36,456 bases of DNA from Falciphora oryzae. Taxonomy: Eukaryota; Ascomycota; Sordariomycetes; Magnaporthales; Magnaporthaceae. Made by a program: the position numbers and the translations under genes. The stretch spans positions 112,657-149,112 of the forward strand of contig JNVV01000071.1 in NCBI GenBank assembly GCA_000733355.1, read 5' to 3'. This document shows positions 1 through 33,866 of this stretch, piece by piece; the stretch's first letter is position 1; the number at the start of each line of letters is the position of its first letter. The notes below the pieces were generated by a model. It saw only the letters and a list, made by a program, of their open reading frames with translations, was not told the DNA's origin and searched no databases.

Positions 1-655
1 CCTCGTGCCCGTTTTCCGCGGCATACGATAGCGGCGTCCACGCAAACCCGTCTTTCGAATTGACGTCGACTTTGCCTGTAGCGAGCAGCAGTTTGACGAC
101 GGCCTCGTGCCCGTTCTCCGCGGCACACGACAGCGGCGTCCGCCCGTCCCCCTTCGAATTGACGTCGACCTTGCCTGTAGCGAGCAGCAGCTTGACGACG
201 GCCTCGTGCCCGTTCTTCGCGGCACGCCATAGCGGCGTCCGCCCGTACCGGTCTTTCGAGTCGGCGTCGGCCTTGCCTGCAGCGAGCAGCAGTTTGACGA
301 CGGCTTCGTGCCCGTTATTCGCGGCATACGACAGCGGCGTCCGCCCGTACCGGTCTTTCGAGTCGGCGTCGGCCTTGCCTGCAGCGAGCAGCAGTTTGAC
401 GACGGCTTCGTGCCCGTTATTCGCGGCATACGACAGCGGCGTCCGCCCGTACCGGTCTTTCGATTTGCCGTCGACCTTGCCTGTAGCGAGCAGCAGCTTG
501 ACGACGGCCGATAGCGGTGTCCGCCCGTACCGGGCTTTCGATTTGCCGTCGACTTTGCCTGCATCGAGCAGCAGCTTGACGACGGCCCCGTGCCCGTTCT
601 CGGCGGCCCACGACAGCGGCGTCCGGCCATTTCCATCTTTAGTGTCAATAATAGT
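1..655 (-). repeat. Tandem 102-bp ankyrin-coding repeats
   Basis: Six complete repeats and one cut by the window edge encode the ankyrin part of the receptor. The period is 102 bp (34 codons), once 99 bp. The blocks starting at 241 and 343 are identical over a full period, so they were duplicated or converted recently. One repeat (about 470-545) lacks 24 bp in frame, removing the helix YAANNGHE. Such homogeneity is typical of fungal NLR repeats under concerted evolution. Confidence 0.85.
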
Positions 656-2465
656 GTGGTCCGCCCTCCGCAAAATGACCCCTAACGCCCCTACCACTCC
701 ATACCTCGACAAAACGTGTACCAAACTGGTCCCTTCTGGCGGACAATCACCAGAATATTTTTCCAATATCCCGTAAACACATACCCACCGCTCCACAAAA
801 GCCTCCGATGGCCAATAAAAGCATTCCAAAAAATCCTCTTGACGGACATCCCTAGCGTCGCTTTGTTTCGCGTGTGCCACCCACGAAGTTGTGGCGTAAT
901 GCAAAAAAGGAAAGTCGCGACGCTTATAGCTTGTTAACTGACCGATCTCCTCCATCGCTAAATAGCGTATGCAGATCTTGGACAGCCGGTGATGTGCCAT
1001 TCCGATTATCGCATCGGTCGACGTTGCGCTGCCGCCCAGAACCGAAAGGCCCTTTTCGACGAAGAAGTCCTTGACGGACTGGTGGATGAACTGGACAACC
1101 TGCGTATAGGATGACGACGTGACTTCGGCAAGACCGCGGCTGAGCGTTTGAACTTTCCTCTTCATCCTGTCGCTATCGGACACATAATCTTTCGCGCCCT
1201 GGCATTCCTGGAATGACCGGTATGGGCAATCGGCGTCGATAACCATAGCCCATCGCAATTCGGCTAATGATAAGGGCCGCGTGGCAAAGCAGATCCACTG
1301 GATCAGCTTTAGGGAGTCCGATTTCATGCTTTGGAGGACTGTACGGTATAATTCGTCGAGATCCGGAGGGATAGAATGGATTGCCGCTTCGATCGCCCCT
1401 AACCCTTCACCCTCGCGGTCAAGGTCCAGAATTTGCTTCACCACAAGACACGCCCACAGGAAAACACCCGAAGCTCGAGTTTTAATAAGGCTCGACATTC
1501 GGGTTAGGCGTACCGAAAGTCGAGCTTGTACGTAGGCCGAAATATCCTTATCGTTTTCGTGCTCGAGGCATATCGCCAACCCGTTCTCAGACGTCAAAAT
1601 GGGGTAATAACGACAGGTAAAGCAGATGCTGCATCGAGAGGCAGTCGATGGAAGCCTTTGAAGCAGTGCCTCGAAAGCCTCTACCAGCTCGATGGCATTT
1701 TCTTTACCACATTCGTCCAAGGCATCAATAAATAATTGAACTGGGCGTCTCTTTAGGACCTTTGGGAGTGATGACTCGAAAAAGCCCTGCAGTTCGTGTG
1801 GATGCCATCGCCAATTCTCGCCTGGGTTTCCAATAGTTTTTTGTCGATGTTCAAATGTGTCGACGAGGTCCGACAGTGCGCTGGGGTCCTTGGTGAGGAG
1901 TTGGTGAAGAAGTGACCTGTAAAGGCCAAACGGGGTCCTTTGGAGCTCATCACCGCGACCATGGAAGAAGAACGAGAGAACGAGAGTGTTGTCTCCGGCG
2001 CCGTGCTCGGCTCCATTGTCGAGAACGTATTTTAGCAATGTCGACTTCCCAGAGCCCGGCTTCCCCTTGATCCAGAGCAGGCCTCGATCGCAGGCGGCCC
2101 AGCTCCGATATGTCTCGTGTCGAAGCAGCCACTCGCATGTCCCCTTAACGGCGCGGTCAATATTATGGGAGCGATTCTGCATTTGCGGAAAGGCTAGCGA
2201 TCTGAGACAATCTTGTCTGAGACGTTCTGGGGACGGCTGTGAAGGTTCGTGTGGGCCTGAGCGATATGGTGAGTTGAGAATCTCTAAATTGTCGATTAAA
2301 AGGCCCGTTCTTACCAATATGCACATTCCCATGGAAAGTAGCCCCAGGGAATTGGGGACCGTTGCCTTTGCTGATGCTTTGAGTACCACTAAGAGCGTTG
2401 AATTGGTCGCCAGTGCCATGGCTGTGATAGGATGGCCTTTGGGAAGAGGGCCCAGCGTGTTCCAT
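1..2465 (-). CDS. Sigma-motif NACHT-ankyrin STAND receptor (NLR), 3' end off the window
   Basis: NLR-type receptor, the presumed sensor of the sesA/sesB-like cluster beside it. Exon 1 is 2465-2315, the intron 2314-2257 (58 bp, donor GTAAGA, acceptor GCTCAG), and exon 2 runs from 2256 to the edge, open throughout. At least 802 residues are visible. The start is the first ATG after an in-frame TAA. Residues about 17-50 are the amyloid motif (GTGDQFNALSGTQ, then QFPGATFHGNVHIG). After the intron comes the pre-NACHT segment CLRSLAFPQMQNR, then Walker A GKPGSGKST (115-123), Walker B LFIDALDEC, sensor TCRYYP, and the usual HQSVKDFF winged-helix segment. From about residue 585 there are seven ankyrin-type repeats of 34 residues (GRTPLSYAANNGHEAVVKLL), nearly identical to each other. 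The second lacks 8 residues. The C-terminus lies outside the window. Ligand unknown; the repeats should bind it. Confidence 0.9.
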
Positions 2466-3307
2466 CTCTTGGAACCGGTCTAGCTCACGTTAGATCAATT
2501 GAAAAAGGACGAAACGAGGGAAACGTGAGTGGGGTTGTACCGGCGAGGGCGAGATCGCCGCGTCGGTTGGCTCGTTGGCGGTCGCTCCAGGCCTGAGGGC
2601 GGCCAGCTGTTGCCAAGAGGGTTCCGCGGAATTGTGGCGACGTAATCAGATGGATACAAACGAGATCAAGTCGTCTTGAGAAGATCAAAGGGCGTGCAAT
2701 ATTTCGGGGCTTCACTCGCGAGCCGAACAAGAGTTTGACGCTGTTGGGAGGCGGGGAGGCTGGGTCGGAACAAGGTCGTTTGAGAGCGGAGGCTCCTTCC
2801 CAATGCTTCGAGGCCCGACAGGTGCACCTGCTGATTAGGCCGACGTGCGGAATGGATTGGGCTCCGGCCTGCGCCCGGCCTGCGCGTCTTCTGGGCTGGA
2901 TGCTTCGGCCATTGGCTTCATGCTTATGCTCTTGCATTGCGCTAACATGCATGAGGTCGACCTGATCGCCAATCAGTCAAGCATCAACAAGTGTCGGCAT
3001 CCCAAGCCAAATCCGGGGCCGCCGCCCTGCAGTTAGCGTCACACGTAGCCACTGCGTACACATACCTAGCAAATAAGAATCGAGACTCTCACGGGAGACG
3101 CCAAGTAATATTGTTGTTATTGAACGCTCTAAGCGCTTTGCTTTCCATTCGCTAATCCTGTACGACATAATTCATTCCACGAACATGCCTTGTTTCTGTA
3201 GACGTTGAAGACCCGACTTTTGGGGGAAAATATCGACAGTTACAAGACTTCCAGACATTAGCAGCGTCGGAGCCCACCCACAACCCGGATGCCGCCCTCC
3301 GCCTAAG
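2466..3307. promoter_or_regulatory. Divergent intergenic region between the NLR and the SesA-like gene
   Basis: This 842-bp gap lies between the start codons of two head-to-head genes and must hold both promoters. I see no convincing TATA box or operator in it. Open frames inside it (for example minus 2485-2952) have no recognisable protein character. The head-to-head layout would allow joint transcription of sensor and effector, which is an inference from position only. Confidence 0.5.
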
Positions 3308-3952
3308 ATGGCAGCCAACTCGATCTCGAGCACGGTCACCACTCTCGGGGCCGCCAGACAGCACTACGATGTCGTCAAAAATGACAAGGGACTCCGAGAG
3401 GCTTTCCATGAAGCGGGCCGGGGGCTGCTCCTTACCGAGCAGGCTCTTCAAACCGTTAGCACCCAACTAGCCAGACGCAACCCAGCCGGGGAGCCCCAAA
3501 GCGCCGTGGCTTGCAACATCAAAGCAAGGCTATCCGAGACCATATTCAAGCGCGTCGCTCAAGCAGCAGAGACTTTGAGGGTCCACAAGTACAAAGCTGC
3601 CGTACAAGACGGCAATGGAAATACGGTGGAGGCCTTGATGATGGGTATGATGAAAGACGTATGTGCCCTGGCCGAAAACGATGCGATTAAGGGCATGGAA
3701 GACCAAGTCAAGGGACTGCGCGATGCGATCGAGAGGTTGTCAAAGGTGGAGCCGTCCGTACCAGAGGAGGGGTCGGGCTGTACTTTTACCCTCTCTGGCC
3801 CTGGCAAGATGTTTACCGCTCTCGAGGGCGCTGTTCAAAACATCGCCACCGATAGCACTGGTCCCAGTTTCCCCGGGGCTACTTTCTCTGGGACGGTGAC
3901 CTTTGGGTTCCCGTCGCCCCAATATCCGCCGCCCGAGCATCCGAAGAAGTAG
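3308..3952 (+). CDS. SesA-like protein with C-terminal sigma-type amyloid motif
   Basis: Single-exon protein of 214 residues. Residues about 1-150 look like the helical SesA domain found on fungal death-pathway proteins: SSTVTTLGAARQHYDVV, GLREAFHEAGRGLLLTEQAL, then helices ending near AIERLSKV. A short linker follows, and residues about 164-200 are the amyloid motif. The second half is well kept (SFPGATFSGTVTFG). The first half (GPGKMFTALEGAVQ) has lost the QFN core and carries two extra residues before the second half. Unlike its two partners, the protein continues 14 residues past the motif with a Pro-rich tail (FPSPQYPPPEHPKK). It sits head to head with the NLR and convergent with the hydrolase gene, 221 bp away. 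The likely role is an adaptor or effector seeded by the NLR motif. The domain call is by pattern only. Confidence 0.8.
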   Translation: MAANSISSTVTTLGAARQHYDVVKNDKGLREAFHEAGRGLLLTEQALQTVSTQLARRNPAGEPQSAVACNIKARLSETIFKRVAQAAETLRVHKYKAAVQDGNGNTVEALMMGMMKDVCALAENDAIKGMEDQVKGLRDAIERLSKVEPSVPEEGSGCTFTLSGPGKMFTALEGAVQNIATDSTGPSFPGATFSGTVTFGFPSPQYPPPEHPKK

Positions 3953-4173
3953 CCCTTCACGCTGCCACGACACTAGCAAATGCCGAAGATTAATTCTCGA
4001 TGGGTGCCATTCGTTGTTGGCCGGGCAGGTTGTGCGGGTAGGCGTGTTGTTCGTCTGGTGGCATGGCTCGATGATGGTTAGTTCAACGAAACGAACCACA
4101 GAAGGTAGATTCAATCCGAAGCTAGCATATCGACCCCTGCCCAAAGGTTTTTGAACGGCTCTCGAGCACCCTC

Positions 4174-5295
4174 CTAGCCAAACTGCACAGGCCCATGGAA
4201 AACAGCCCCAGGGAATTGGTTGCCACTGCCTTCGCTAATGTTCTGAGTGCCGCCAAAAGCGTTGAATTGGCCGCCGGGGCCACAGTTGTCAAAGGATGTG
4301 ATGGCCGGCTTCTTTATTTGTGCTCCTTCTATCGATCGTGTTGGCCCACTGGCAGCTGGATTCCTGCTTTGTGATTCCCATCTGATCAGCTCGCCAACCA
4401 GCCTTTTGAATCCATTATCTTCCGTGGAGCCAAACCTGACCATGTCTTTATGGTTGGCGTGAATGCTGAAGGAGCTGTAGCCTTCAAGGGTGGCTGACTC
4501 CTTGGACACGACCTTCCCGACCACGGGCAGAGGCAGTTCTTCAAAGAAGCATGTGACCTCGATTCGCCTGCCGGCTTCTCGCAGTTCCCGCATCATGGAC
4601 CAAAACCTGGCTTGAACGGACTCTAAGAACTGGCTATCCGTCTCCAAGATCTCTAGAAGTAACTTGTTGGTGGACTTTACGTGGCCAAGAGCCGAGACCG
4701 GTATCTTGGCCCACTCGGTCATCCGCGAACCCTCGTGAGGGGTGCCCATAAATATGATGCCTTTGGTGCAATCGAATATGCCGCGGAGATGAGGTTCCGG
4801 GTTGTTTCGCGAGAGCAGAATAGCCTCCTTGCAGGCAAGGCCGCCCAGGCTGTGGGCGACGAAGATGAGGGGACGAAATGACGCATTGCAGCCGGCTCTG
4901 TCCGTTGTCAGGTCGTGCACAAGGTTCGTGGCATGGTCGATCAGCCGATTTGACGATGCAACCGATTTTCGCACAATGTATGCGTTGTAGCCGTACGTGA
5001 GTATGCGGGCTCTATCGAGCCTCGGTGGGAGGAGGGTCTTTGGCCAGGGCTCAGACTGCCCGGAGGCGGTCCAGGTGCTGTCCCGGTCCCCGGTCAGGCC
5101 GTGGACAAAACAGATGTCGACTGTGGCGTCGGGGCAGTCGTGCAGGACTTTGACTCCATCCGGGAAGGAGGGTAGGGGAGCGCTCTCGGAAGACGGGCCT
5201 GGGCCCATCGCGGGGGGCGGTTGGGGATGAGATGGCGCAGAGTTGGGGCGGCGCTGCTTCCGCCATGGGAGTTTCCATCGGCATCCTCCCATCAT
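4174..5295 (-). CDS. SesB-like alpha/beta hydrolase with C-terminal sigma-type amyloid motif
   Basis: Single-exon protein of 373 residues, a serine esterase/lipase-type alpha/beta hydrolase. VDICFVHGLTGD (59-70) is the oxyanion-loop strand, and WPKTLLPPRL...RILTYGYNA (84-105) follows. FVAHSLGG gives nucleophile Ser149, IIFMGTPHEGS (180-190) is the family signature after it, and His282 in NHKDMVRF is the likely catalytic His. Residues 339-373 are the amyloid motif (GPGGQFNAFGGTQ, then QFPGAVFHGPVQFG), and the chain ends exactly there. It aligns with the NLR motif without gaps. The first about 45 residues are basic and Pro-rich, outside the fold, so Met30 is an alternative start. SesB-type proteins are proposed effectors switched on when the NLR templates their motif; the substrate is unknown. 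Confidence 0.88.
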   Translation of the reverse strand: MMGGCRWKLPWRKQRRPNSAPSHPQPPPAMGPGPSSESAPLPSFPDGVKVLHDCPDATVDICFVHGLTGDRDSTWTASGQSEPWPKTLLPPRLDRARILTYGYNAYIVRKSVASSNRLIDHATNLVHDLTTDRAGCNASFRPLIFVAHSLGGLACKEAILLSRNNPEPHLRGIFDCTKGIIFMGTPHEGSRMTEWAKIPVSALGHVKSTNKLLLEILETDSQFLESVQARFWSMMRELREAGRRIEVTCFFEELPLPVVGKVVSKESATLEGYSSFSIHANHKDMVRFGSTEDNGFKRLVGELIRWESQSRNPAASGPTRSIEGAQIKKPAITSFDNCGPGGQFNAFGGTQNISEGSGNQFPGAVFHGPVQFG

Positions 5296-7182: not shown

Positions 7183-10100
7183 CTAGAGATCCCTGCCTGC
7201 AACCAAGTCGAACAAATAATCCTCTTCCTTCTCTTCGAGTTCTTGAGGACGACAACCCGCCCAAAGTCCCCCGGGGAAAACGGTACCTTCCAAAATATGC
7301 CTCAGGAATGCGTTGCCAATGTCGGCTAGTACACCCGCTCGTTCGTTCTTGCCGAGGAGTTCGTGAAATTTCTCAACATCTTTATCAGACATCCTCCCGT
7401 AGTCCGAAACTAAAACCGGGCCGTCTTTGGCGAGGAAGCAGACGAAGGGTAAAAGACCTCGGTAGCGCTTGTTGAAAACCCTCGCGAGTTTGCGAGCCCG
7501 GGTTATCTGGTTGAGAAAAGCCGCCCTTTTTATCCCGCAGCCGACTCCCTTGAAGACCCTGTCCAACTCTTCAGTCGGCACCCTCTGGAACCCGGCGGGT
7601 ATGCGGGCTTTCAATTTTTCGGCGACTTCTATCGTAGCAACCGCGGACCGTAGCGCAGAGAAAGCAGAAGAGCGATCAAACTTGAGGCTGAGAAGATAGA
7701 GTCGAGCGGCTTGTTCGTGCCATTGTCCTTGGACGATGAATTCGGTTGGTATTTGCGGGGAGGCAACCATCTCTTTCGCAGCAATGAACTGTTTTACTCC
7801 TCGCAACATTGCCGCTTTGTCCGTCAGATTTTCTGCCAGCACTCTGAGAGGTGGCACCTCCCTCTGCTTTTTCAGTGGCTGCTCGGCCGCCGATTCGGAG
7901 CTTGCCGACGCTTGCTCGGCTGCGGTCCGCTTCCTAGGGGACGTCCTCACAGGTCCCGAGGGACCCTTGAGCCGTAGTGCACCGGTCCGTTTCGGGCGTG
8001 ACGGTGCCTGCTCCACACGTTTGAAGTTCCCGAGCTTCTCTTCCGCCGCGAACGAAAGGCCGCACCTTTTGCACACCTTTGTTATGCCCTTGGGGAACAA
8101 CGGCTCGCCGGGCAGCAGGAAGTTGATGGCTATAGCGAACGATGCGGTCTTGTTGATGACCATGTGGTATTGTCTCGGCAGTGTGACGACCATCTCGCCG
8201 GGCTGGGCGCACAGCACATCGAATTCGATATCCGCTGCACGGAGGTCGGCCGGCCTGATGAGCAGGTTGTGGTGGCGGAGCCATTGGTCGCAGTCGAGAC
8301 CGCCGTGGCGGTCCTTGACGTACTTTTCGAAACGTCTCGTAGACTCCGGGTTAATCAGAACCCACAGCTTCACTCCGAGCAGGCTGATATTGGCGGATCG
8401 GAACTCTGCATCTTCGCGATGCCAACCGGTGCCCGAATTCGCTTCACCGATGTGATCGTATGGGCTTGTCACGCCGGCAACGTGCCCATTATTCAGTCGA
8501 CCATTAGCTAGCCGCAGCTCCGCCAGCTTTGAAAGCTCGCCCGCGTGGAGCAGGCTGCTGAACTGCGCCGCAGAGTCCGTGACCGGGGGCCCGACGTAAT
8601 AACTGATCGGTCCTTTTGGGGGGTTGGCGCAAACGTCGTCGATGTACTTTTCGACATCTGCTTGGGAAAGGCGAGTATTTCGCTCCTCGGGAAAGTCCGG
8701 AAGCTGGAACTCGTCCTCTGTAGCGGCAAGATACAGCCTGTTTTCACGGCCGTATTCCACAGCACGCAGATCCCAACCCTCCACCGGCGGTTGAATAGTT
8801 TTTTTCAGTTGGTCTCGGGTAACCTCCTGCAAGCCTTCGATGCGGATGAGTCCGGTGAAATTGCGCCCGAACTTCTTCAACAGGTTTGAAGCAAACCCCT
8901 GCCCCATTTCGTCGACGTGCATGGCCGGCGGAGTGGCTCCTTGCGGACCGTCCCCGCACCCGCCAGCCGTCTGCTGTGGGGAATCGGGTGTATCAACGCC
9001 GAGGCTCCCGGGAAGGGCGGCTGCACCACGAGAGGGACTTCTGGGGGGGCCGCTGAGGGTATTGCTGGACGACGCCCATGCTTCGGGACGGCCGCCTTCG
9101 GATGCGGCGTGAGCATCGCCCGGCGGCGCGTTAATCGCGCGGAAGCCTCTAGGGTTCGTTGGGCCGGGGGCGGGGTCGGCTGCGGGTGCTGCGGACTTCG
9201 TTGGAGGCGCATCAGACTGTATCTCGCTGGGGGGGCTGCTGGCGGCGGAACTGGTGGAAGTGGAACTGCCGCTCCTCCCTGCCGGCTCGCTGCTCGTCGT
9301 CGACAACGCAAGCGCTGAGGCAGGCTCGCTGTCGGGCATGTCGACATCCAGGTTATGCGCCGAACTTGGAGAGTTCGGGCTCGGGTGAACTGGAGGCCTT
9401 GCGTTGGCGCCGCCTGGTGGGAACGGCGGGGTGCCGGAGGGGGAAGCCAGGAGACTGTGGCTGCTGCCGGCTTGGGCAGAGTTGGGCTCGCCCCCTGTCG
9501 AATCAGCTGAACCCAACAAGCCCGGGGTGGCCTGCGATGTGGCGTGTTCGCTGGGGAGGCTGCGGAAGCAGCTGGGGGATTTGCGGTAACTGCCGCCAGA
9601 GTCTGCAGGCTCGCTCCCCGTCGTCGAGGATGTCAAAGGACCGCTGTGGCTGCTGCCAGCTTGTTCACGCAGAGGTTCATCGGCACCGGAGCTGCGGAGG
9701 GGACTGCCGAGAACATTTTCCAGTGAGCCGACGGAGGCGATGTCGCCAATGTTGTCTCTGTCAGGAGGAGCATTCGGCAGCACTCCAAGGTCGGCGGAGC
9801 CGCCGCTGCGGGGACTGTGACCGGTGGGTGACGCCGGCGCTGTTGCAGTGTGGGGGCCGGGGTCACTGCCGGCAACCTGAGGTGGAGCGTGGCGAGCGGA
9901 GCGGCGCGAGTCTGCACGCTCTAGTTCGATGACTGCGTTCAAAATTGATGGTTAGCTTTTGTTTGACGGTTAACTAGCGTGGTTGCTTACCGGGCCCGGC
10001 TGCCTGGATATCGGCCAGCAGCTTCCTCTTTTGCCCGGCTAGCCGCTGGGCTCGCTGCAGCTCGGCTTGGAGTCGCTGTACCTCGGCTTCCTCCTGATCG

Positions 10101-12740: not shown

Positions 12741-13189
12741 GGACCAACAGTAGGCTCGTTGGTCCCCCGCATCTCCGGCCGGGCCCAGGGGGGGTCCCGA
12801 GNNNNNNNNNNNNNNNNNNNNNNNNNNNNNNNNNNNNNNNNNNNNNNNNNNNNNNNNNNNNNNNNNNNNCCCCGCCCAAACCCGGCCTCAACCCCCTTTT
12901 TCCGGCACACCCGCCGGCCGACAGCATCACTACCAACAGCAGCGCTTACAGCGCCCAGGCATTTACTCGCCCTTTTGCCGATTGCCCGCTCACCAACAAG
13001 GAGCGCCGGAATGCGGCCCGAACTCCGTGTGCCTTGGGCTTGCCCCATGGTTTGATTTGTTAGCCGCCTCGATAGCAACATGTAGCCCAATGTCAAGCTT
13101 AGGTAGCGCTAGCACGTCGTATGCCCCCTGGGAGGCAGGGACTGGTAGATCCCGATTTGATGACGTTAAATATACTCCTACTCCTCCCT
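12741..13189 (+). mobile_element. SINE-like retroelement, copy A (contains assembly gap)
   Basis: About 80% similar by eye to the reverse complement of 35605-35981. Both copies begin at the same 25-bp palindromic head (GGACCAAC, 9-nt loop, GTTGGTCC; here 12741-12765) and end at GACGTTAAATA followed by a pyrimidine-rich tail (CTCCTACTCCTCCC). Flanking sequences differ, so these are the true ends. Positions 12802-12869 are N. The tail ends about 67 bp from the stop of the following NLR gene. Confidence 0.7.
12802..12869. other. Assembly gap (68 N)
   Basis: A run of undetermined bases inside the GC-rich head of SINE-like copy A. Frames crossing it cannot be judged. Confidence 0.99.
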
Positions 13190-13256: not shown

Positions 13257-16091
13257 TCAACATGAGTTTCTGAGCTCGACTGCCGCCTGCAGGAGGGAGT
13301 TAATCGCCTGGTCTCCCTTCGATTCGTTTTCACACCGACTAGTAAGCGCGATCTGATCAATTGAGCCGGTGATCTCCAAAGGTCTCTTCCCGCGAAGGAC
13401 GGAGAACAGCTCCATCACGTGATCCTTTGGCCAGTCGGCCGCATCCACATCTTCAATTGAGAGAGGATCGGCCCCAGCCTGGAGCAGGGTCTGAACTCCC
13501 TCGAAATCGCGCCCCACAACGGCTATCTGAAGCGGCGTGCATGGCAACCCGCGGGCATTGGGATCCGCACCCATACTGAGGAGCCTTCGGAGCGGGCAAT
13601 CGTCCTTGCAAGATGATGATTCGTGGCAATGCCCCCCGATGTAGTAGAGCAGAGCTTTCGTGGGATCGAAAAGGCCCTGGGCGTGATCAAGAAGAAACTT
13701 GAGTGCGTCGGAATCGGTTTCACCGGTTGACACGGCGAATAAGTCGACGATGTTTCCAGAAAGAGTTCTCCACCGGTCCCCTGATCCGCTACCCCACTTG
13801 AAATATAACATGAAGTAGCGGGTTGACAATGACTCTGTCCACATCTGCTCCAAAGCGACGCCGTGCAGCAGAAGCTTAGCTGCCAAATCCAAACGGCTTA
13901 TCCAGAGCAGATATGCGAGAGTGGAGAGATTCGCATCGACGTTCGTGTCCATCTTCAGAACGTCTAGTCTCTGGATCGATTCGTCAAGAATATGGTCCCG
14001 GTCGGAACGCGCCATGGCATCTAGAAACCGGTGAAGATTGCCATTGGATGGGCCCATGAAGTCGAAGACAAGGTCCGGTCTAAGCCTAATGGTCTGGTTG
14101 CCCAAGGCTTGAAGGCTGCTTAGCAGGCAATATGGTGAGGTATCCACTCTCATCGCGTCCAGATAGTCCTGAACATTGCTCAAGTCGCCAACATCTGCTT
14201 GTTGTGCGGTCTCAAACATTACCGTAGCCAGGCTTTCGAATCCACCGTTCATCGGCATGGCGAAGAAAGCAGAGTGCCCCGAGGAGGCTCGGTCGGATTC
14301 AAGATATTCTCGGACGGTGTAGTGTGCAAGCGTTATGTTCCAGACTCCGTTGGCCCCAGTGTCGTCGTAATGGTAAGATAATAAACAACCGCAGCACTCT
14401 TTGATCATCTCGAGGTCGGAAACAAGGGGTTCGGCGACCGAATCTTCCAGACCGCACCGCTGATATGTGCCAACAAGCACAGAGGCTGAAAGAGTAACAC
14501 TCGAGGACCAGATGGTGTTGTGAAATATGACCCATCTTAGACAGTGTCTAACCAGTTCTCTGTCCTCGGGAGTAATATAGGAGTAGATGCGTTCGTATGT
14601 CTCGTCCAGCGTCTCGGGTAGGTTTCTGAGTGCTCCCCTGATTTTCGTCTTGTGCTTCAAGCGGCGCAGGATATCCAGTTGACAGACTGCCCAGCGGAAC
14701 ATGCCCTTAGCTCCTATCGATACAGCTTCTTCGACCTCGGCACGAAGCTCCTCTGGCCATTGTCGGAACACAGGATTGGATTGGATACGAGCGACAACGT
14801 AGCGTCTGATATCCTCTGCAACAAGGGAGTTGGACATGGACAATGGTGTTGCAATGTCTCCCATGACTCTTTCGATGCCGGCATACTCCCTGCTAGTCGC
14901 AAGGAGCTGGATCTTTCCAAACCGCAGAGGATCTTTCGCAAAGGTCTGGAGGATACCAAGTAGATGTTCGTGCGGCTGGCTTTCGTCGAGGGCATCGACC
15001 ACGACAAACACCCTGTCGAAGAGCTGAAGAATCGATTCCAGGTCCTGGAGGAGATCGGTTGGACGTGGTTCTAGTCCCTGGTCGTACAGTTTCTTTAGCT
15101 TGGTGGGGAGGCTTTGGGTCTGTCGACATAACTGGCAGAGAAGCCACCGTAAAAAGGGTGTAGCTTCATCCTGGTTATGCATATGATGGCAGTAGTAATA
15201 TACGGAGACCCATGTCTGATGCTTAGCGGCTTCGCATATTCGGGACAGCTCTTGGATAAGATGAGCGGCGAGTACCGTCTTGCCGGCGCCCGGAATTCCA
15301 TGGATCCAGAGGCAACGGCTGCGTGGCTTCTCAGCGATCCAGCTGCCCCAATGTGATGTTCGAAGCACCCAGTCCCCGGTCTTTTCTTCGTAGTCGGAAA
15401 TCGCCGTATTGTGAATTGGGGAAGGATCGGTATGTTGAAGCCACATGAGCACGTCACGCAGTCGCGTATCTTAATGTTAGTAGGTTGTCAGTAGTGACCA
15501 GGAGTAATCGCGTATGCAACGAGGGACGCACCGTTGAAGGATTTGGTAACCTCAAACAGGCCACGCTGGATTTCCTTGACGCTTTGGCTGCAACGGCTCA
15601 TTAGTTTAACCGCAGGGCATCTCAGTCAGCATCACGGCTTACAGAGATTCTGCGGATATCGCCAAGCTGATGGACGTCTTGTGCTGCACTAGTTGGCTGA
15701 GGAGAGCACGAGCCTTCTCCTCTCGAAAGGGCCATGCTAGGGCAGCTAAAGATAATTTGATCCTCTTCCTCCTTCCCCCTTCTTTGTCGTTTTGGAGCTG
15801 CTCTGGTGGAAATAACTTCTCCAGCTCGGAAGTCGTCTTCCGGCATCCTTCGACAGGACCGTTGTTACCGCCCAGGCCGGCGAGAAGGGTCGATGTGTTG
15901 CCATCACTCTCAATCAGAAAAGTCAGGTTTTCGAGAAGGACCTTAAGACTTGATATCTCGACGAGCATAACCCGCAGGTCCTTGGGATAATTTGTCAACC
16001 CCCCAATGTAGGCCTTGCAGAGTTCGGCGACGCGATCCGCGATCTGGATCACCGCAATGATGCCCGCGCAGAGCGCAAGCGCCTCGGCCAT
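13257..16091 (-). CDS. HeLo-like NACHT-ankyrin STAND receptor (NLR)
   Basis: Three exons: 16091-15643, 15587-15532 and 15469-13257. The introns are 15642-15588 (donor GTAAGC) and 15531-15470 (donor GTGCGT, branch CTACTAAC). They join in frame to give 905 residues. The N-terminus (MAEALALCAGIIAVIQIADR, then KDLRVMLVEISSLKVLLENL) is the fungal HeLo-like STAND N-terminal type. That family resembles membrane-attacking HeLo domains and can itself be the death effector. The linker DVLMWLQHTDPSPIHN is the conserved segment before NACHT. Walker A is GIPGAGKT (226-233) and Walker B VFVVVDALDE (322-331). After the winged-helix region, two or three diverged ankyrin repeats (about 805-865, for example RRLLSMGADPNARG and VQTLLQAGADP) are seen. 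No amyloid motif is present. Appears intact. Confidence 0.9.
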
Positions 16092-25338: not shown

Positions 25339-27687
25339 TCATCCTCGGACCGTCGAGTTTGCAAAAGTCGAGTTTTTGGAACCTAGACTCCCGCCTAGTG
25401 CGGCCGTGTACGCAATGTCCCATGCCAGGCTCACCCCGTTGAGGTAGACGCTGTCGGGCGTCTGACTCCTCATGAACCTGTAGCTCTCGACCGCCCCGGC
25501 CTCGTCGGCGATGGCGAGGTTAACGTAGACGTGCCCCGTGAAGCCGCCCGCGGGGAGGTTGCCGCTCTTGTTTCCCGCAAAGTACTGGTCCCACTCCTCG
25601 CGGACGAACGCGGGCCTGCGGACGTAGGCGCTGCTGGGCACTATGGGCAGCATGTGGATGCCCTGGATGAAGGCGACGTCGTCGCCAAAGTAGGTGGTGT
25701 GGTTGCACTTGCGGTCCCAGAGGATCCCCACGGCGCGGTTGCCGACGAAGGATGGCGGCTGCACGTCGTTGTCGCTCGCGAGGAGGAAGTAGGACTGCAG
25801 GCTGCGGGCCGTGACGGCGAGCTGGAGGTTTCCGCGCGCCTCGGCGGCCGGGTTGTTGGTCGCGCGCCCCCACATCTTGATGGCGTACGTCGAGAAGGCG
25901 TCCTCGGCGGAGGATTCCTGGTCCTTGCCGTCGGGGGCCTCGAGCACGCCGCGCGCCCAGCTGTGGCCGTGGAACCAGTCGAAGCTGCGGGAAAAGGGGA
26001 AATAAGGGTCCTGAGTAGAGGGGTTGGACCAGTCGCGGATCAGGTTGTCGACCCAGACACGGTTGACGCCGTTCTTGCGCGTCAGCCAGGACGGGTCAAA
26101 GTGCGCAATGACGGCCGCCGTGTAGACGTAGTAGCCGTAGTGGAAGTTGTGGTCGTTGTAGAAGGTGTTGCCAAAGTCGATGCCGGAGTCGCCGTTGCCG
26201 TACGAACCCGAAGACACGAGGCCCTTCCATACGTCGTCGTAGAACAGCGGGTTCGGCTCCTGGTTGTCGACGTAGCGGTCGAAGGCGGCCTCGAGCTTGC
26301 GCAGGGACTCGCCCTTGAACGAGGCGTCGCCCGCTATCTCGGTGGCGGCGTAGAGGGCCCGAGCGTAGACGGAGAAGGCGATGCCGCTGTAGTACTTGGA
26401 GGTCAGGTTGGTGAGCTTGACGATGTCGCGGGCGAGCTCGACCTTCGCGGCTTGCACGACGGCGGCCTTGGCCTCGTCTGAGATGGCGCCGCCGGGAGCG
26501 CCTTTGGATCCCACGGAGCCCAGGCGGGGTGACCAAGGGTCGAAGCTGATGTCGGTTGGAAGGTCGTTCTCGACCATGGTGAAGGCGTCGGCAAAGGTGG
26601 CAGTCGCCACGCCCTTGGTCGTGCTGGCCAGCTTGACGTTGGTGACACCGCTGGCAGTCTTGGCGTCAAAGGACTTGACGTGGTGAGGCAGGGCATACAT
26701 CAACAGCGGCTTCTGCTTGGCACCCTTCTTCTCCCAGGCCAGCGTGTACGTCCCCGTTTTGCCCGAGACGGACCCAGAGACGGTGCCGCCCGCTGGATAC
26801 GCCCCGGCTGCCTTGTTGAACACCTGGATGCCTGACGCTCCGCTGGGGTTCTTGGCTACCTGAACAGTTCCAGTGAAACCCCGAGGTCCCAGCAGCGTTG
26901 CTCCATCGTCCGTTATGGTGAGAGTCAGTCTTGCGGAGGAGGCGTTGTTGCTTGGGTTGAGATAGATCAACCAGTTCGACCTATCGCCCAGCCGAGCACT
27001 CCAGCCGTATACGGTAGCATTGCGGCCATAGGAGCCACTCATTCGAAGGTCGGTAATGTTGGAAAAGCGCCTCTGGGACTGGATGAGGACCGTGGCGTCG
27101 CTGTAGACGCCCGTCACGAACGCCATCCCCTGGACGAGGGGGAACGAAACAATCGGCTTGGCATCTTTCCTCGGCGCCAGGTTGACGTTGACGGCAAAGG
27201 CCGTCAACGTGTCCGTCGTCAGGGCCGTGCCGTTCTGGAGCTCCCGGGCAGAGAGGGCGATTGACTGCCGGAAGAAGGGGTCCTCGAACGACTGCGCCGC
27301 GGGCTTGCCTGGGCCGTACACGAAGTCGGCATGGCCCGTGTGGGAGACCGACAGCCCGTGGCCCTGCCTGGCCGTGTCGTTGGACCACCACACCGAGTAG
27401 GGGTGCGTCCACGTGGCGTTGTCCTGGTTGCCGGCGAAGAAGTTGGCGTAGAACTTGTTGGTCTGGATCGGGCGGCGGCCGGCATCCTTAACGCCGACTG
27501 GCAACTGCGGGTGATCATCGCGGGTGGGGACCAAGATGGGCCGGTCGTGGGAGACGGGCACGAAGACGTTTGTCTCGGGGCCCCGCTTGCGGTGTGCCTG
27601 CGTTGCGGGACCGTACGGGACCGGGTTCAGATGGCCGCAAGCCAGCTCCGCCAACAGGACGGCGGCTGTAAGAAGGCAGGAAACCAT
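25339..27687 (-). CDS. Secreted GH81 endo-beta-1,3-glucanase
   Basis: Single-exon protein of 782 residues, typical for family GH81, which hydrolyses internal beta-1,3-glucan bonds in fungal walls (septum splitting, remodelling, or attack on other fungi). A signal peptide (SCLLTAAVLLAELACG) starts the chain. The N-terminal beta part shows the family signatures PIQTNKFYANFFAGNQ and YSVWWSND. The catalytic barrel shows NDHNFHYGYYVYTAAVIAHF with Asp512, then DWFHGHSWARGV and KDQESSAEDAF with Glu591 and Glu595, the expected acidic pair. All key residues are present. There are several N-glycosylation sequons, and the C-terminus is Ser/Gly-rich (GSLGSKNSTFANS). No carbohydrate-binding module is seen. 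It is an ordinary housekeeping or secreted enzyme among NLR genes. Confidence 0.95.
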   Translation of the reverse strand: MVSCLLTAAVLLAELACGHLNPVPYGPATQAHRKRGPETNVFVPVSHDRPILVPTRDDHPQLPVGVKDAGRRPIQTNKFYANFFAGNQDNATWTHPYSVWWSNDTARQGHGLSVSHTGHADFVYGPGKPAAQSFEDPFFRQSIALSARELQNGTALTTDTLTAFAVNVNLAPRKDAKPIVSFPLVQGMAFVTGVYSDATVLIQSQRRFSNITDLRMSGSYGRNATVYGWSARLGDRSNWLIYLNPSNNASSARLTLTITDDGATLLGPRGFTGTVQVAKNPSGASGIQVFNKAAGAYPAGGTVSGSVSGKTGTYTLAWEKKGAKQKPLLMYALPHHVKSFDAKTASGVTNVKLASTTKGVATATFADAFTMVENDLPTDISFDPWSPRLGSVGSKGAPGGAISDEAKAAVVQAAKVELARDIVKLTNLTSKYYSGIAFSVYARALYAATEIAGDASFKGESLRKLEAAFDRYVDNQEPNPLFYDDVWKGLVSSGSYGNGDSGIDFGNTFYNDHNFHYGYYVYTAAVIAHFDPSWLTRKNGVNRVWVDNLIRDWSNPSTQDPYFPFSRSFDWFHGHSWARGVLEAPDGKDQESSAEDAFSTYAIKMWGRATNNPAAEARGNLQLAVTARSLQSYFLLASDNDVQPPSFVGNRAVGILWDRKCNHTTYFGDDVAFIQGIHMLPIVPSSAYVRRPAFVREEWDQYFAGNKSGNLPAGGFTGHVYVNLAIADEAGAVESYRFMRSQTPDSVYLNGVSLAWDIAYTAALGGSLGSKNSTFANSTVRG

Positions 27688-30469: not shown

Positions 30470-33400
30470 ATGGAGGCCCTCACGGCCCTTTCCGTCGCCA
30501 CCAGCGTGATCCAGTTCCTCGACTTCGGCAGCAAGCTGCTGTCCAATTCTCGCAAGTTCTACAGGTCCTCCAGCGGGGTGCTGTCGGAGCACATCGACGT
30601 CGGGAATGTCGTCAGGGACCTCGTGACCCTCGTCCGGGCGCTGGAGCGAAAGCTCCCGGAGAACCGCGCGCAGTCGGAGCCGGGCGCGTGGGGTGACGAA
30701 CGCAACATCCTCGGCGACGTGGCGACGCACGAGGACGTCGTCTTCCTGGACGGCCTCTGCAAGCGCTGCGTAGAGATCGCCGACGAGCTGCTGGGGCGGC
30801 ACGAGAAGCTCAAGGTGGACAGGGACAGCAAGGCGACGACGGGGCAGACGCCGGGCGACCGCACGCCGATCTTGCCATCGCGCACCGCTGGAGGCGACAA
30901 ATTAGACCTGGGGGGCCCGAGTCTGCTGGGGCGCAAGGCCTACAGACTGTTCCATGGCTGGCGCAGCTTCCGGAAGGCGCTCGAGGCGGCCTGGAGCAAG
31001 AAGGAGATTGAAGGGTTGCTGGAGACGCTGCGAGAGTTCAGGAGCGAAATAGAATTTCGCATGATTATCATCTTCCGGTTCGCGCAGCCCCAAACTCAGC
31101 TCCTACCTACCTTACACATCCTGCTCACCCTAAAGACATCGAGGAACTGACGTCGCACGGCACACTGTGTGGTTCAGGGGCTCTCTCAACTCGCTGGCCA
31201 TCGACCAGTCCCGCTCGTCCCAGCAGCTGATCCAGTCGACACAGGCGATACTCGACAGCTTCCTGCAGGCCCGAGACTGCTTTGCGGACCAGCTCCGGAT
31301 CCAGACCGAGCACCTGCTGAAGATCCAGAACCCGGAACGGTTCGGCACGAAGCAGATCCAGAAGATCGAAGACTCCCTGAAGGGCAAGCTGGATCCCATC
31401 GGCAACTTCCAGTCGCCCAGGGGAAACAGGGAAGCTCAAGACCCCGACTCGGAGCCGTCGGCGGCCTGGGACCCCAAGATCCAGGAGGAGGTCCGCCTGC
31501 TCATGGCCGAGGCCGGCATCCTGCGGAGCCTGTCGTTCGCGACGCTGAGGGACCGCGAGCGGAGCGTGGAGCTCCCGCACCGGCAGACGTTCGAGTGGAT
31601 CTACCGCGAGTCCGACAAGGTCGGCTTCTCGGCCTGGCTGCGCGAGGGCGACGGGATCTTCTGGATTAACGGCAAGCTCGGGTCCGGAAAGTCGACCCTC
31701 ATGAAGTACATCTCCGACAGCGAGCGCACGAGGACGGAGCTCGCCAGGTGGTCCAAGGACAGCGGCCTGCCTGTCGAGACGTCCAGCTTCTTCTTCTGGA
31801 ACAGCGGCACCGAGGACCAGAAATCGCAGCAGGGCCTCTTGAGGTCGCTTCTCGTCGGCATCCTGCAGAGCCGCCGCGAGCTGCTCCCCCGGGTCTTCCC
31901 GCAGGCCTGGTCCGCGTGGTCGGCCCGGGCCACCGCCCTGGTCGTCAATAACATCCACCCCTACTCCGACCTGCTGCCCCCTGAGCCGGCACCCTGGACC
32001 ATGGAGGAGCTCAAGAGCGGCTTTCGGGCCGTGATCGACGCTCTCCGCGGTAAAGTGAAGCTTTGCCTCTTCATCGACGGACTTGACGAATACGCCGGGG
32101 AGTATTTCGACATCACCGAGTTTTTTCTAGAATACGCCGGGTCGCCGGACCTCAAGCTCTGCATATCCAGCAGGCCCATATTGGCCCTAACGCAGGCGTT
32201 CGGCGGCATGCCGGGCATCCGGCTGCAGGACCTGACCAAGAGCGACATCAGCTACTACGTCAAGAACCGGCTCGAGAGTCACGCGTACTTGGCGCTGCTG
32301 TCCGCGAGGAAGCCCGAGGACGTCGCGTCGCTTGTGGATGAAATCGTGAGCAAGGCGAACGGCGTCTTCCTCTGGGTCAAGCTTGTCGTCAGGTCCCTCC
32401 TGCGCGGCATGTCCGACTACAGCCGCGTCTCGGACCTGCGCAGGCGCGTGAGGCACCTGCCCGAGGACCTCGAGGCGCTCTACGCGCACATGTTGAAGAA
32501 CACCGAGCCGTTTTACCACCAGCAGGCGTCGGAGCTGTTCCAGATCGCCCGCCTAGCCCACGAGCGCTCGCGCAGCAGGCTTACTCTCCTGACCCTCTCG
32601 TGGGCGGAGGAGGAGGACGTGACCCTGGCCGAGACGGCGCCCATCAAGCCCCTGTCCGCCGAGGAACTGGCGGCGCGGTGCGAGACCATGGACGCGCGGC
32701 TGAAGAGCGTCTGCGCGGGGCTGCTGGAGTCGACCGACCGCAAATTCTCCGACATCGCGCCGGACGCCAAGGTCGACTTCCTCCACCGCACCGTCTCGGA
32801 CTGGATGACCAAGGCGGAGGTCTGGGACGCGCTCTGCTCCCGGACGGCCAGGTCGGGATTCAGCGCGAACCTCGCCATGCTGAGGTCGTGCGTCCTGGGG
32901 CTCAAGACGACGCAGCCCGGAGCATCGCTAGTCGGCATACAGATCCCCTCCGAGGCACTCGCCTACGCGCAGGCAGCCGAGGCAGAGATGGGAGTCGGCT
33001 TCCCGAGGCTGCTGGACCAGCTGGACGTCGCCGTTTCGTACCACTGGCGCATGACGCACAGGAACACGACCACGGTCGGCGCCCCGGACAAGACCGCGCA
33101 GTCGATTCCCGGGACGTTGTCGTCGAGGATAGTAACGTCCGACATGCCGTATCATTGGTCGTACGGACTCCATATACCAGGCGTGACGGCTCCAGGAGAG
33201 GCGCCGACCTTTTACGAGCTGGCCCGCGCCCTGGGCCTGTCCCACTACATCGCGGCCAAGGACGATTCGGGCGTTATCATCGACCAGGACGTTAACCAGC
33301 ACCTCCTGTCGCACGCCATGGCCACCGCCGCCGCCGCCGTCGCTGTGGGCAACGAAGGGCACGGCGGACGGGGGGCGGTGCCGGACCCGCGCTTCGTCGA

Positions 33401-33866
33401 CACGGCCCTCGAGGCCGGCGCGAACCCCAACTTCTCGTACCACGGCGCCTCGCCCTGGGAGACGGCGCTGTCGGCCGCGGCGCGCCACTTCAGCCTCGGC
33501 AGCGCCCCAGCTACCGTGGGGGATGTCGACTCGCAGTGGGAGCTGACGGCCAGGGGATGGGCGGGCGTCCTCGAGGCCTTCATCAGGCACGGCGCCGACA
33601 CGGGCCTCGTGGTCAGAATCAGGCAGCGGCATGGCGGCTCGCTGAGCCTGTCGCCGCGGGCCGTCCTCGAGCTGTTCCCGGCGTGCATGGCCGACAAGGC
33701 CGACGGTCTCCACGCTCTGCTTGACGAAAGAGGGAGGGGCCGAAAGTACACGGCTGCTCGCGAAATTGTGGAAAAGGCGCCAGGTTTGGTACCGGCGGTA
33801 GAGAATAGACGCGAGGCTAAAGACGTAGTTTCATGGACGGGCTGGGCTCTCTCTTGGTTTCGTTGA
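30470..33866 (+). CDS. NACHT-DUF7791-type STAND receptor (NLR)
   Basis: Two exons, 30470-31077 and 31178-33866, giving 1098 residues. The intron is 100 bp, with an unusual donor GTTCGC, branch ACTGAC and acceptor TTCAG. The join CG|G restores the frame (IIFRGSLNSLAIDQ). The N-terminus (MEALTALSVATSVIQFLDFG, then SKLLSNSRKFY) is the usual helical domain in front of this NACHT class. Walker A is GKLGSGKST (from 368) and Walker B LFIDGLDEY (500-508), with SRP sensor and ANGVFLWVKLVVRSLLRGM. The segment VDFLHRTVSDWM belongs to the DUF7791-like region after NACHT. The last third carries weak ankyrin-like traces (ALEAGANPNFSYHGASPWE and AFIRHGADTGLV) but no regular array. No amyloid motif. The first intron should be confirmed by RNA because of its donor. 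Confidence 0.88.

What the first reader, a model, noticed from the sequence alone, without database searches (positions are those of the whole stretch)
1..5295. Complete three-gene amyloid death-signalling cluster (NLR, SesA-like, SesB-like)
Three adjacent genes of unrelated architecture share one two-part motif: N-terminal on the NACHT receptor, C-terminal on a SesA-like protein and an alpha/beta hydrolase. This is the arrangement in which an NLR triggers effectors by prion-like templating (sigma element of Nectria haematococca, HET-S/NWD2, PP-motif systems). What I see is the motif and the gene order; the family name sigma is from memory of those systems; signalling is inferred. Having two different effector types under one receptor suggests a branched output.
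Basis: partly seen in the sequence, partly recalled or inferred. Interest (0 to 1): 0.88.

Follow-up and report, generated by a model that had tools for sequence, protein, structure and literature searches.

The report
Fungal sigma-type amyloid immune gene trio
A fungal genome carries a receptor gene and two partner genes that share a short amyloid-type tag, a known kind of immune or cell-death switch; this trio has a duplicate elsewhere in the genome in which the receptor and one partner appear to have copied part of the tag from each other.

Summary
Window 1-5295 encodes a NACHT-ankyrin NLR (minus), a SesA protein (plus) and a SesB alpha/beta hydrolase (minus) that share the Pfam NACHT_sigma motif: 60.6 bits in NLR exon 1, 58.5 in SesB, only 25.6 (cut-off 27.6) in SesA. 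This matches the published het-eN/sesA/sesB locus of Nectria haematococca, including a 5' intron behind the NLR motif. One NLR serving two effectors is already in print for sigma. Corrections: the NLR is not complete (it runs into a 5,946-base assembly gap) and SesA's motif is divergent. New here: a scan of the 50-Mb genome gives six sigma hits, all in two paralogous triads, this one and one on contig C102. Motif codons are far more alike between these unrelated genes than codon usage predicts, and in C102 the NLR and SesB share an identical 70-nt tract, evidence of gene conversion. The window's cluster shows no such tract: its SesB motif matches the other cluster's NLR (83%) better than its own (66%), so cross-talk is predicted. 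Amyloid formation and signalling are inferred. New member of a known kind.

The parts
2315..2465 (-). NLR exon 1 (start codon at 2465), carrying the N-terminal sigma motif at 2417-2315 (residues 17-51; residue 51 spans the intron)
   Evidence: NACHT_sigma 60.6 bits; gene model and residues; the C102 paralogue has the same exon
2257..2314 (-). predicted 58-nt GT-AG intron between motif exon and NACHT exon
   Evidence: Keeps the frame open, as it does in the C102 paralogue at the same place; other acceptors (31, 88, 103 or 121 nt here) also keep it open. The 58-nt choice gives a junction like that of many of the 31 annotated relatives that carry the motif. A missed 5' intron is described for het-eN (PMC3321046 passage)
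1..2256 (-). NLR exon 2: NPHP3_N/NACHT domain with GKPGSGKST and LFIDALDE stretches, then ankyrin repeats; runs off the window into a 5,946-base N gap
   Evidence: Pfam; gap; ankyrin DNA period 102 bases, 5 copies, 89% match
3308..3952 (+). SesA: SesA-family helical domain (residues 6-121) plus degenerate C-terminal sigma motif at 3797-3907 (residues 164-200)
   Evidence: SesA PF17107 96.4 bits; NACHT_sigma 25.6 bits; AF2 model: helices to residue 146, then a low-confidence tail
4174..5295 (-). SesB: alpha/beta hydrolase with C-terminal sigma motif at 4281-4177 (residues 339-373)
   Evidence: NACHT_sigma 58.5 bits, DUF676 20.3 bits, at its cut-off; H148, S149, G151, G152 and H282 invariant in 35 of 35 aligned proteins; fold matches to alpha/beta hydrolases
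2484..2529 (.). conserved inverted repeat (CTCACGTT...AACGTGAG), 18 bases from the NLR start codon
   Evidence: Also upstream of the C102 NLR; three places in the whole genome; the 65 bases around it are 94% identical between clusters, against 76-77% for the two long alignments of the cluster

Best explanation
This is a sigma-type NLR/effector triad of the het-eN/sesA/sesB kind. Shown by sequence: an ankyrin-repeat NACHT receptor with a sigma motif instead of an effector domain at its N-terminus, next to a helical SesA-domain protein and a SesB alpha/beta hydrolase, each ending in a sigma motif. Inferred: on ligand binding by the ankyrin array the NACHT domain oligomerises, its N-terminal motifs fold into an amyloid nucleus, this templates the C-terminal motifs of SesB (and, less surely, of the divergent SesA), and clustering switches on the hydrolase and the SesA helical domain, giving growth arrest, cell death or a self-propagating sigma-like state. 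A paralogous triad on contig C102 is a second, partly parallel circuit.
For: Pfam hits on all three, SesA below the cut-off. The six NACHT_sigma hits of the genome scan fall in two triads with the same gene order and relative orientation. The predicted intron after the motif exon is at the same place in both clusters. All 58 listed SesA relatives and 74 of 120 listed SesB relatives carry the motif; organisms named span Sordario-, Leotio-, Eurotio- and Dothideomycetes (classes recalled). SesA and SesB have consecutive locus tags in four annotated genomes. In 13 linked SesA/SesB pairs the motifs are on average more alike than in unlinked pairings (0.642 against 0.563, permutation p at its floor of 5e-5). 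Genetics of the homologous N. haematococca locus: SesA is needed for sigma, SesB mutants lose the growth effect only (PMC516043 passages). The triad was described as a unit in 2012 (PMC3321046 passages).
Against: SesA's motif is below the Pfam cut-off by hmmscan and near the bottom of 58 relatives. In this cluster NLR and SesB motifs are only 66% identical, less than SesB to the other cluster's NLR (83%), contrary to the published rule that motifs group by cluster; and the rule is loose among the 13 linked pairs too. The NLR's 3' part is unassembled, so its integrity is unknown. Other splice acceptors are possible. No expression, fibril or phenotype data.
Confidence: 0.82

Rival explanations
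1. The window's triad is drifting out of use: its NLR and effectors no longer pair well, and the C102 receptor may now drive SesB of both clusters.
For: SesB71 motif 0.83 to NLR102 against 0.66 to its own NLR71; SesA71 motif degenerate. The only significant conversion tract lies in C102.
Against: SesA and SesB reading frames are intact and the NLR frame is open to the assembly gap. The functional N. haematococca SesA scores as low as this SesA. Cross-seeding tolerance of sigma motifs is unknown.
Confidence: 0.3
2. SesA is a regulator of SesB rather than a second parallel output, so the pathway is not branched.
For: Graziani 2004 infers that SesA is most likely a regulatory factor for SesB, one model having modified SesA convert SesB (PMC516043 passages). 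SesA here has the weakest motif of the three.
Against: Pigment and growth phenotypes separate between SesA and SesB; SesA domains also occur as N-terminal effectors of NLRs (PMC4518210 passage).
Confidence: 0.3
3. The shared motif is only a low-complexity Gly/Asn/Gln tail with no amyloid role.
For: The motif is G/N/Q-rich and of low confidence in both AF2 models.
Against: Six genome hits, confined to two triads; motif similarity follows linkage across species on average; codon identity between the unrelated genes exceeds the codon-usage expectation. PMC3321046 mentions, as unpublished, fibrils of the het-eN motif peptide (passage).
Confidence: 0.06

Closest known systems
het-eN/sesA/sesB (sigma element) locus of Nectria haematococca (PMC516043, PMC3321046, PMC5485727; passages seen)
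   Same: NACHT-ankyrin NLR with N-terminal sigma motif and a 5' intron; SesA and SesB with C-terminal motifs on opposite strands; SesB 68% and SesA 54% identical (P0099, P0045).
   Different: A duplicated triad in the same genome; receptor-effector motif mismatch in the window's copy; unknown phenotype; NLR 3' end unassembled.
PNT1/HELLP/SBP (PP-motif) triad of Chaetomium globosum (PMC5485727 passages)
   Same: One NLR, one HeLo-like protein and one lipase-like protein sharing an amyloid motif.
   Different: Different motif (PP, not sigma) and a HeLo-like rather than SesA domain. PP was not searched for here.
NWD2/HET-S of Podospora anserina (PMC4344463 passages)
   Same: NLR N-terminal motif templates an effector encoded next door.
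   Different: The HET-s motif (PF11558) passes its cut-off nowhere in this genome (best 17.4 bits against 32.2); single effector; WD repeats.

Membership tests
sigma-motif NLR/effector triad (het-eN/sesA/sesB) | NACHT_sigma motif at the NLR N-terminus | tested here: met
   60.6 bits, cut-off 27.6
sigma-motif NLR/effector triad (het-eN/sesA/sesB) | NACHT_sigma motif at the SesB C-terminus | tested here: met
   58.5 bits
sigma-motif NLR/effector triad (het-eN/sesA/sesB) | NACHT_sigma motif at the SesA C-terminus | tested here: inconclusive
   25.6 bits against 27.6; 27.3 alone, 27.8 with its neighbours, in the genome scan; 34.5 bits with an HMM built from external relatives, inside the range of 58 external SesA (34.0-72.7)
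sigma-motif NLR/effector triad (het-eN/sesA/sesB) | SesA-family N-terminal domain on the small effector | tested here: met
   PF17107, 96.4 bits, model positions 1-122 of 122
sigma-motif NLR/effector triad (het-eN/sesA/sesB) | SesB alpha/beta hydrolase with nucleophile elbow | tested here: met
   DUF676 20.3 bits, at its cut-off; S149 and H282 invariant in 35 of 35; 170 Foldseek PDB matches at E <= 0.001, thioesterases and other alpha/beta hydrolases at the top, but with low TM-scores (0.35 for the first) from a model of pLDDT 64.5
sigma-motif NLR/effector triad (het-eN/sesA/sesB) | the three genes are adjacent | tested here: met
   same in the C102 paralogue
sigma-motif NLR/effector triad (het-eN/sesA/sesB) | motifs more alike within a cluster than between clusters | tested here: inconclusive
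   Holds as a mean over 13 linked SesA/SesB pairs and for NLR102/SesB102 (0.86), fails for NLR71/SesB71; in only 5 of 13 pairs is the linked SesB the best match of its SesA
sigma-motif NLR/effector triad (het-eN/sesA/sesB) | amyloid formation and cross-seeding of the motifs | not testable with these tools
   needs fibril and dot assays
HET-S/NWD2 (HET-s motif) | HET-s motif PF11558 | tested here: not met
   no hit over the cut-off in the whole genome; best 17.4 bits against 32.2
MLKL/HeLo-type pore-forming helical bundle (for SesA) | fold match to the MLKL executioner domain | tested here: inconclusive

The most novel reading that the evidence does not exclude
Receptor-effector matching in amyloid signalling is maintained by DNA copying (gene conversion) of the short motif between genes that are otherwise unrelated. 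This genome catches it in two states after one cluster duplication: in C102 the NLR and SesB motifs share a freshly copied 70-nt tract, while in the window's cluster copying has lapsed, the receptor has drifted, and its SesB now fits the other cluster's receptor better, so the two circuits should cross-talk.
Probability: 0.35. Interest if true: 0.55.

Novelty: new member of a known kind. Interest (0 to 1): 0.32.

Why it matters
It adds a well-resolved member to the sigma class. Two paralogous triads in one genome, one with a freshly shared tract and one diverged, make a natural test of how much motif mismatch amyloid signalling tolerates and whether duplicated prion-like circuits are insulated. 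The DNA-level result offers a mechanism for the concerted evolution of receptor and effector motifs, which the passages I saw report at protein level only.

Tried and rejected
Rejected: a HET-s-type motif. Rejected: chance, or a genome-wide spread of the motif. Rejected: 'SesA motif is dead', because the N. haematococca SesA with demonstrated genetics scores lower (34.0 against 34.5). Rejected for the window's own cluster: recent conversion. The run test was significant only for NLR102/SesB102 (permutation p 1e-4, the floor of 10,000 shuffles; 0.0015 after correction for 15 pairs; third positions alone 7e-4, about 0.01 after the same correction), and no pair that involves a window gene was significant after correction (lowest uncorrected p 0.023, NLR71/SesB102).

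I therefore looked at the junction in annotated relatives, which favours the 58-nt intron. The draft also called the window's cluster 'the exception' to motif matching; one search shows several loose pairs, and the text says so now.

Led nowhere: SesA against PDB sequences (three matches at E 0.072 or worse); SesA fold search (no Foldseek match at E <= 0.001; inconclusive). The organism was not identified; the closest NLR hits are in Gaeumannomyces (67%). The tools for phage, plasmid, E. coli, viral and prokaryote collections were not used because the genome is fungal. In one search the printed label 'cross' for nlr71/nlr102 is a script labelling slip; that pair is the same gene.

Literature on DNA-level conversion between amyloid motifs of an NLR and its effector: searches were the searches (listings). 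Term finds for 'gene conversion' gave none in PMC3321046, PMC4518210 and PMC4344463, and two mentions about NLR clusters in general in PMC12258605. No paper was read whole; most papers of subscription journals are not held.
Full report
WHAT IS THERE. The window is part of a 50.18-Mb fungal assembly (G000, contig C71:112657-149112). Its first 5.3 kb hold three genes. On the minus strand, an NLR starts at 2465: a 151-nt first exon (2465-2315), a predicted 58-nt GT-AG intron (2314-2257), then a long exon with NPHP3_N and NACHT (120.7 and 27.8 bits) and ankyrin repeats. Acceptors giving introns of 31, 88, 103 or 121 nt also keep the frame open; the 58-nt choice gives the junction that many of the 31 annotated relatives with the motif show. 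Exon 1 encodes the sigma motif (Pfam NACHT_sigma, 60.6 bits, cut-off 27.6). On the plus strand, 3308-3952 encodes SesA (PF17107, 96.4 bits) with a weaker motif at its end (25.6 bits). On the minus strand, 4174-5295 encodes SesB, an alpha/beta hydrolase (DUF676, 20.3 bits, at its cut-off) with the motif at its end (58.5 bits). The NLR is not complete: its ankyrin array runs off the window into a 5,946-base run of N. The visible array is repetitive (period 102 bases, 5 copies, 89% match), which may be why the assembly broke there.

NOT CHANCE, AND DUPLICATED. A six-frame scan of the whole genome with NACHT_sigma (E <= 1) gives six hits: three in this cluster and three in a second cluster on contig C102. 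Five pass the cut-off alone; SesA71 (27.3 bits) passes only with its neighbours in the frame (27.8). Of 14 control genomes one, E. coli, rings below the cut-off. C102 has the same gene order and relative orientation, and its NLR is cut by the contig end. DNA similarity between the loci covers window 1-5228, at 76-77% in the two long alignments; at E <= 1e-3 only short matches near window 21.4 kb and 35.9 kb link the rest of the window to C102:26000-46546. So the triad is duplicated as a unit, and not recently: same-residue codons differ in 47 of 182 (NLR residues 52-300) and 57 of 209 (SesB hydrolase) cases. The NACHT query gives 113 matching stretches in this genome, some of them fragments or motif-only.

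WHAT IT IS. PMC3321046 (passages) describes at the s locus of N. haematococca the same trio: an ankyrin NACHT STAND protein (het-eN), sesA and sesB, with a shared motif missed at first because of an unnoticed 5' intron in het-eN. PMC516043 (passages) places SesB on the strand opposite SesA, as here. SesA and SesB of that species were retrieved at 54% and 68% identity (P0045, P0099). Relatives occur in many filamentous ascomycetes: all 58 SesA proteins and 74 of the 120 listed SesB proteins carry the motif by an HMM of external relatives. SesA and SesB have consecutive locus tags in four annotated genomes (FBEOM_7900/7899, FALBO_5004/5005, K4K60_005894/005893, DL764_008236/008237). Filing it as a sigma triad is therefore safe. 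PMC5485727 states for sigma, as for PP, that one NLR appears to control two effectors (passage), and PMC9815663 notes that sigma goes with both pore-forming and enzymatic effectors (passage); the branched-output idea is not new.

MOTIF EVOLUTION. Between genes that are unrelated outside the motif, motif codons are identical far more often than codon usage in the six gene bodies predicts: NLR71/SesB71 19 of 23 (8.5 expected), NLR102/SesB102 26 of 30 (11.1), NLR102/SesA102 20 of 22 (7.9). Of the 12 pairs of unrelated genes, ten have p 0.0002 or less, SesB71/SesA71 has 0.013 and NLR102/SesA71 fails (0.06), uncorrected; the divergent SesA71 is thus the weak member. The motif copies share DNA ancestry. 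A run-length permutation test finds one significant tract among 15 pairs, NLR102/SesB102: 39 concordant polymorphic sites, p 1e-4 (floor), 0.0015 after correction; 13 third-position sites alone, p 7e-4, about 0.01 after correction. It is an exact 70-nt match between two otherwise unrelated genes, with 22 whole codons in frame in both. Given the divergence of same-residue codons between the clusters, 22 identical ones in a row have probability about 0.001. This points to gene conversion after the cluster duplication. Alternatives are unrecognised nucleotide constraint, assembly error, or a recent origin of the triad by motif copying; the spread of the triad across ascomycetes speaks against the last.

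THE WINDOW'S OWN CLUSTER FITS THE RULE POORLY. Its SesB motif is 83% identical to NLR102 but 66% to its own NLR71; NLR71 is 71% identical to NLR102; SesA71 is at most 57% identical to any of the other five. Over 13 linked SesA/SesB pairs (11 external, picked by eye, plus two own) linked motifs are on average more alike (0.642 against 0.563; p 5e-5, floor), so the published pattern holds as a mean. It is loose: the linked SesB is the best match of its SesA in 5 of 13 pairs and the linked SesA the best match of its SesB in 3 of 13; SesA71 ranks 12th of 13 for SesB71, and SesA102 ranks 9th for SesB102. NLR motifs of other species were not put through this test. Reading: matching may be lapsing in C71, or sigma tolerates such differences. 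The second cannot be excluded: SesA71 scores 34.5 bits with the HMM of external relatives, and the genetically functional N. haematococca SesA 34.0, the lowest of 58.

MECHANISM, SHOWN AND INFERRED. Shown: domains, motif placement, adjacency, duplication, codon-level homology. Inferred from published relatives: ligand-driven NACHT oligomerisation, amyloid nucleation, templating of SesB and SesA, and activation of a hydrolase and a helical effector. Unknown: ligand, phenotype, whether SesA acts in parallel with or upstream of SesB, and whether the two clusters cross-talk.

ANNOTATION NOTE. Of the 120 NLR relatives listed (the best of 1,683), 31 carry the motif, 33 have another N-terminal region and 56 have neither; 41 of the 120 begin exactly at the residue aligned with the same internal methionine (M76 of this NLR), as expected if gene callers skip the motif exon. 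In three cases such an NLR has a locus tag next to or two away from a SesB with sigma (RB596_000186/000184, BFJ70_g16744/16745, FOMA001_g9748/9747). Surveys based on predicted proteins may undercount sigma NLRs.

VERDICT. Real, correctly recognised, and a new member of a known kind. The added interest lies in the paired clusters and the DNA-level evidence for motif copying.

Noticed in passing
window 2484-2529; C102:44316-44362; C13:448763-448808: An inverted repeat CTCACGTT-N30/31-AACGTGAG lies upstream of both sigma NLR start codons; with 25-45 bases between the arms it occurs at three places in 50 Mb, and the pattern read backwards gives none. It may be a shared regulatory element; the C13 place was not looked at.
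   Followed up: partly
G000 C5:551300-553100 (L033, L034): A third locus has a SesB-like frame (71% identical, no sigma hit) directly followed on the same strand by a homologous NACHT-ankyrin frame, resembling the all-in-one SesB-NLR architecture; the NACHT frame contains a stop codon, so it may be broken.
   Followed up: partly
L036 6146-6847 minus (C2:644145-644846): A SesA-like protein (26% identical to the window's SesA) with a G/N/Q-rich tail that looks sigma-like by eye and is not among the NACHT_sigma hits, upstream of NACHT-like and (by eye) WD-like frames on the same strand; possibly a divergent sigma-type or all-in-one system.
   Followed up: partly
window 13257-16091 (minus) and 30470-33866 (plus): Two further NACHT-type NLR-like genes (NACHT with a PigL_N-like stretch below its cut-off and weak ankyrin hits; NPHP3_N with DUF7791), so the window is NLR-rich; no sigma hit lies in them.
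   Followed up: no
window 7183-9942 (minus): A JmjC-domain protein (66.8 bits) with a long Ser/Pro-rich N-terminus lies next to the cluster; it has no match in the C102 stretch compared.
   Followed up: no
window 25339-27687 (minus): Glycosyl hydrolase family 81 protein with both Pfam domains nearly full length.
   Followed up: no
window 12802-12869: A 68-base run of N inside the window, probably a second assembly gap.
   Followed up: no
public NLR relatives listed: 41 of 120 listed relatives start at the same internal methionine, suggesting that gene callers often skip the sigma motif exon.
   Followed up: partly
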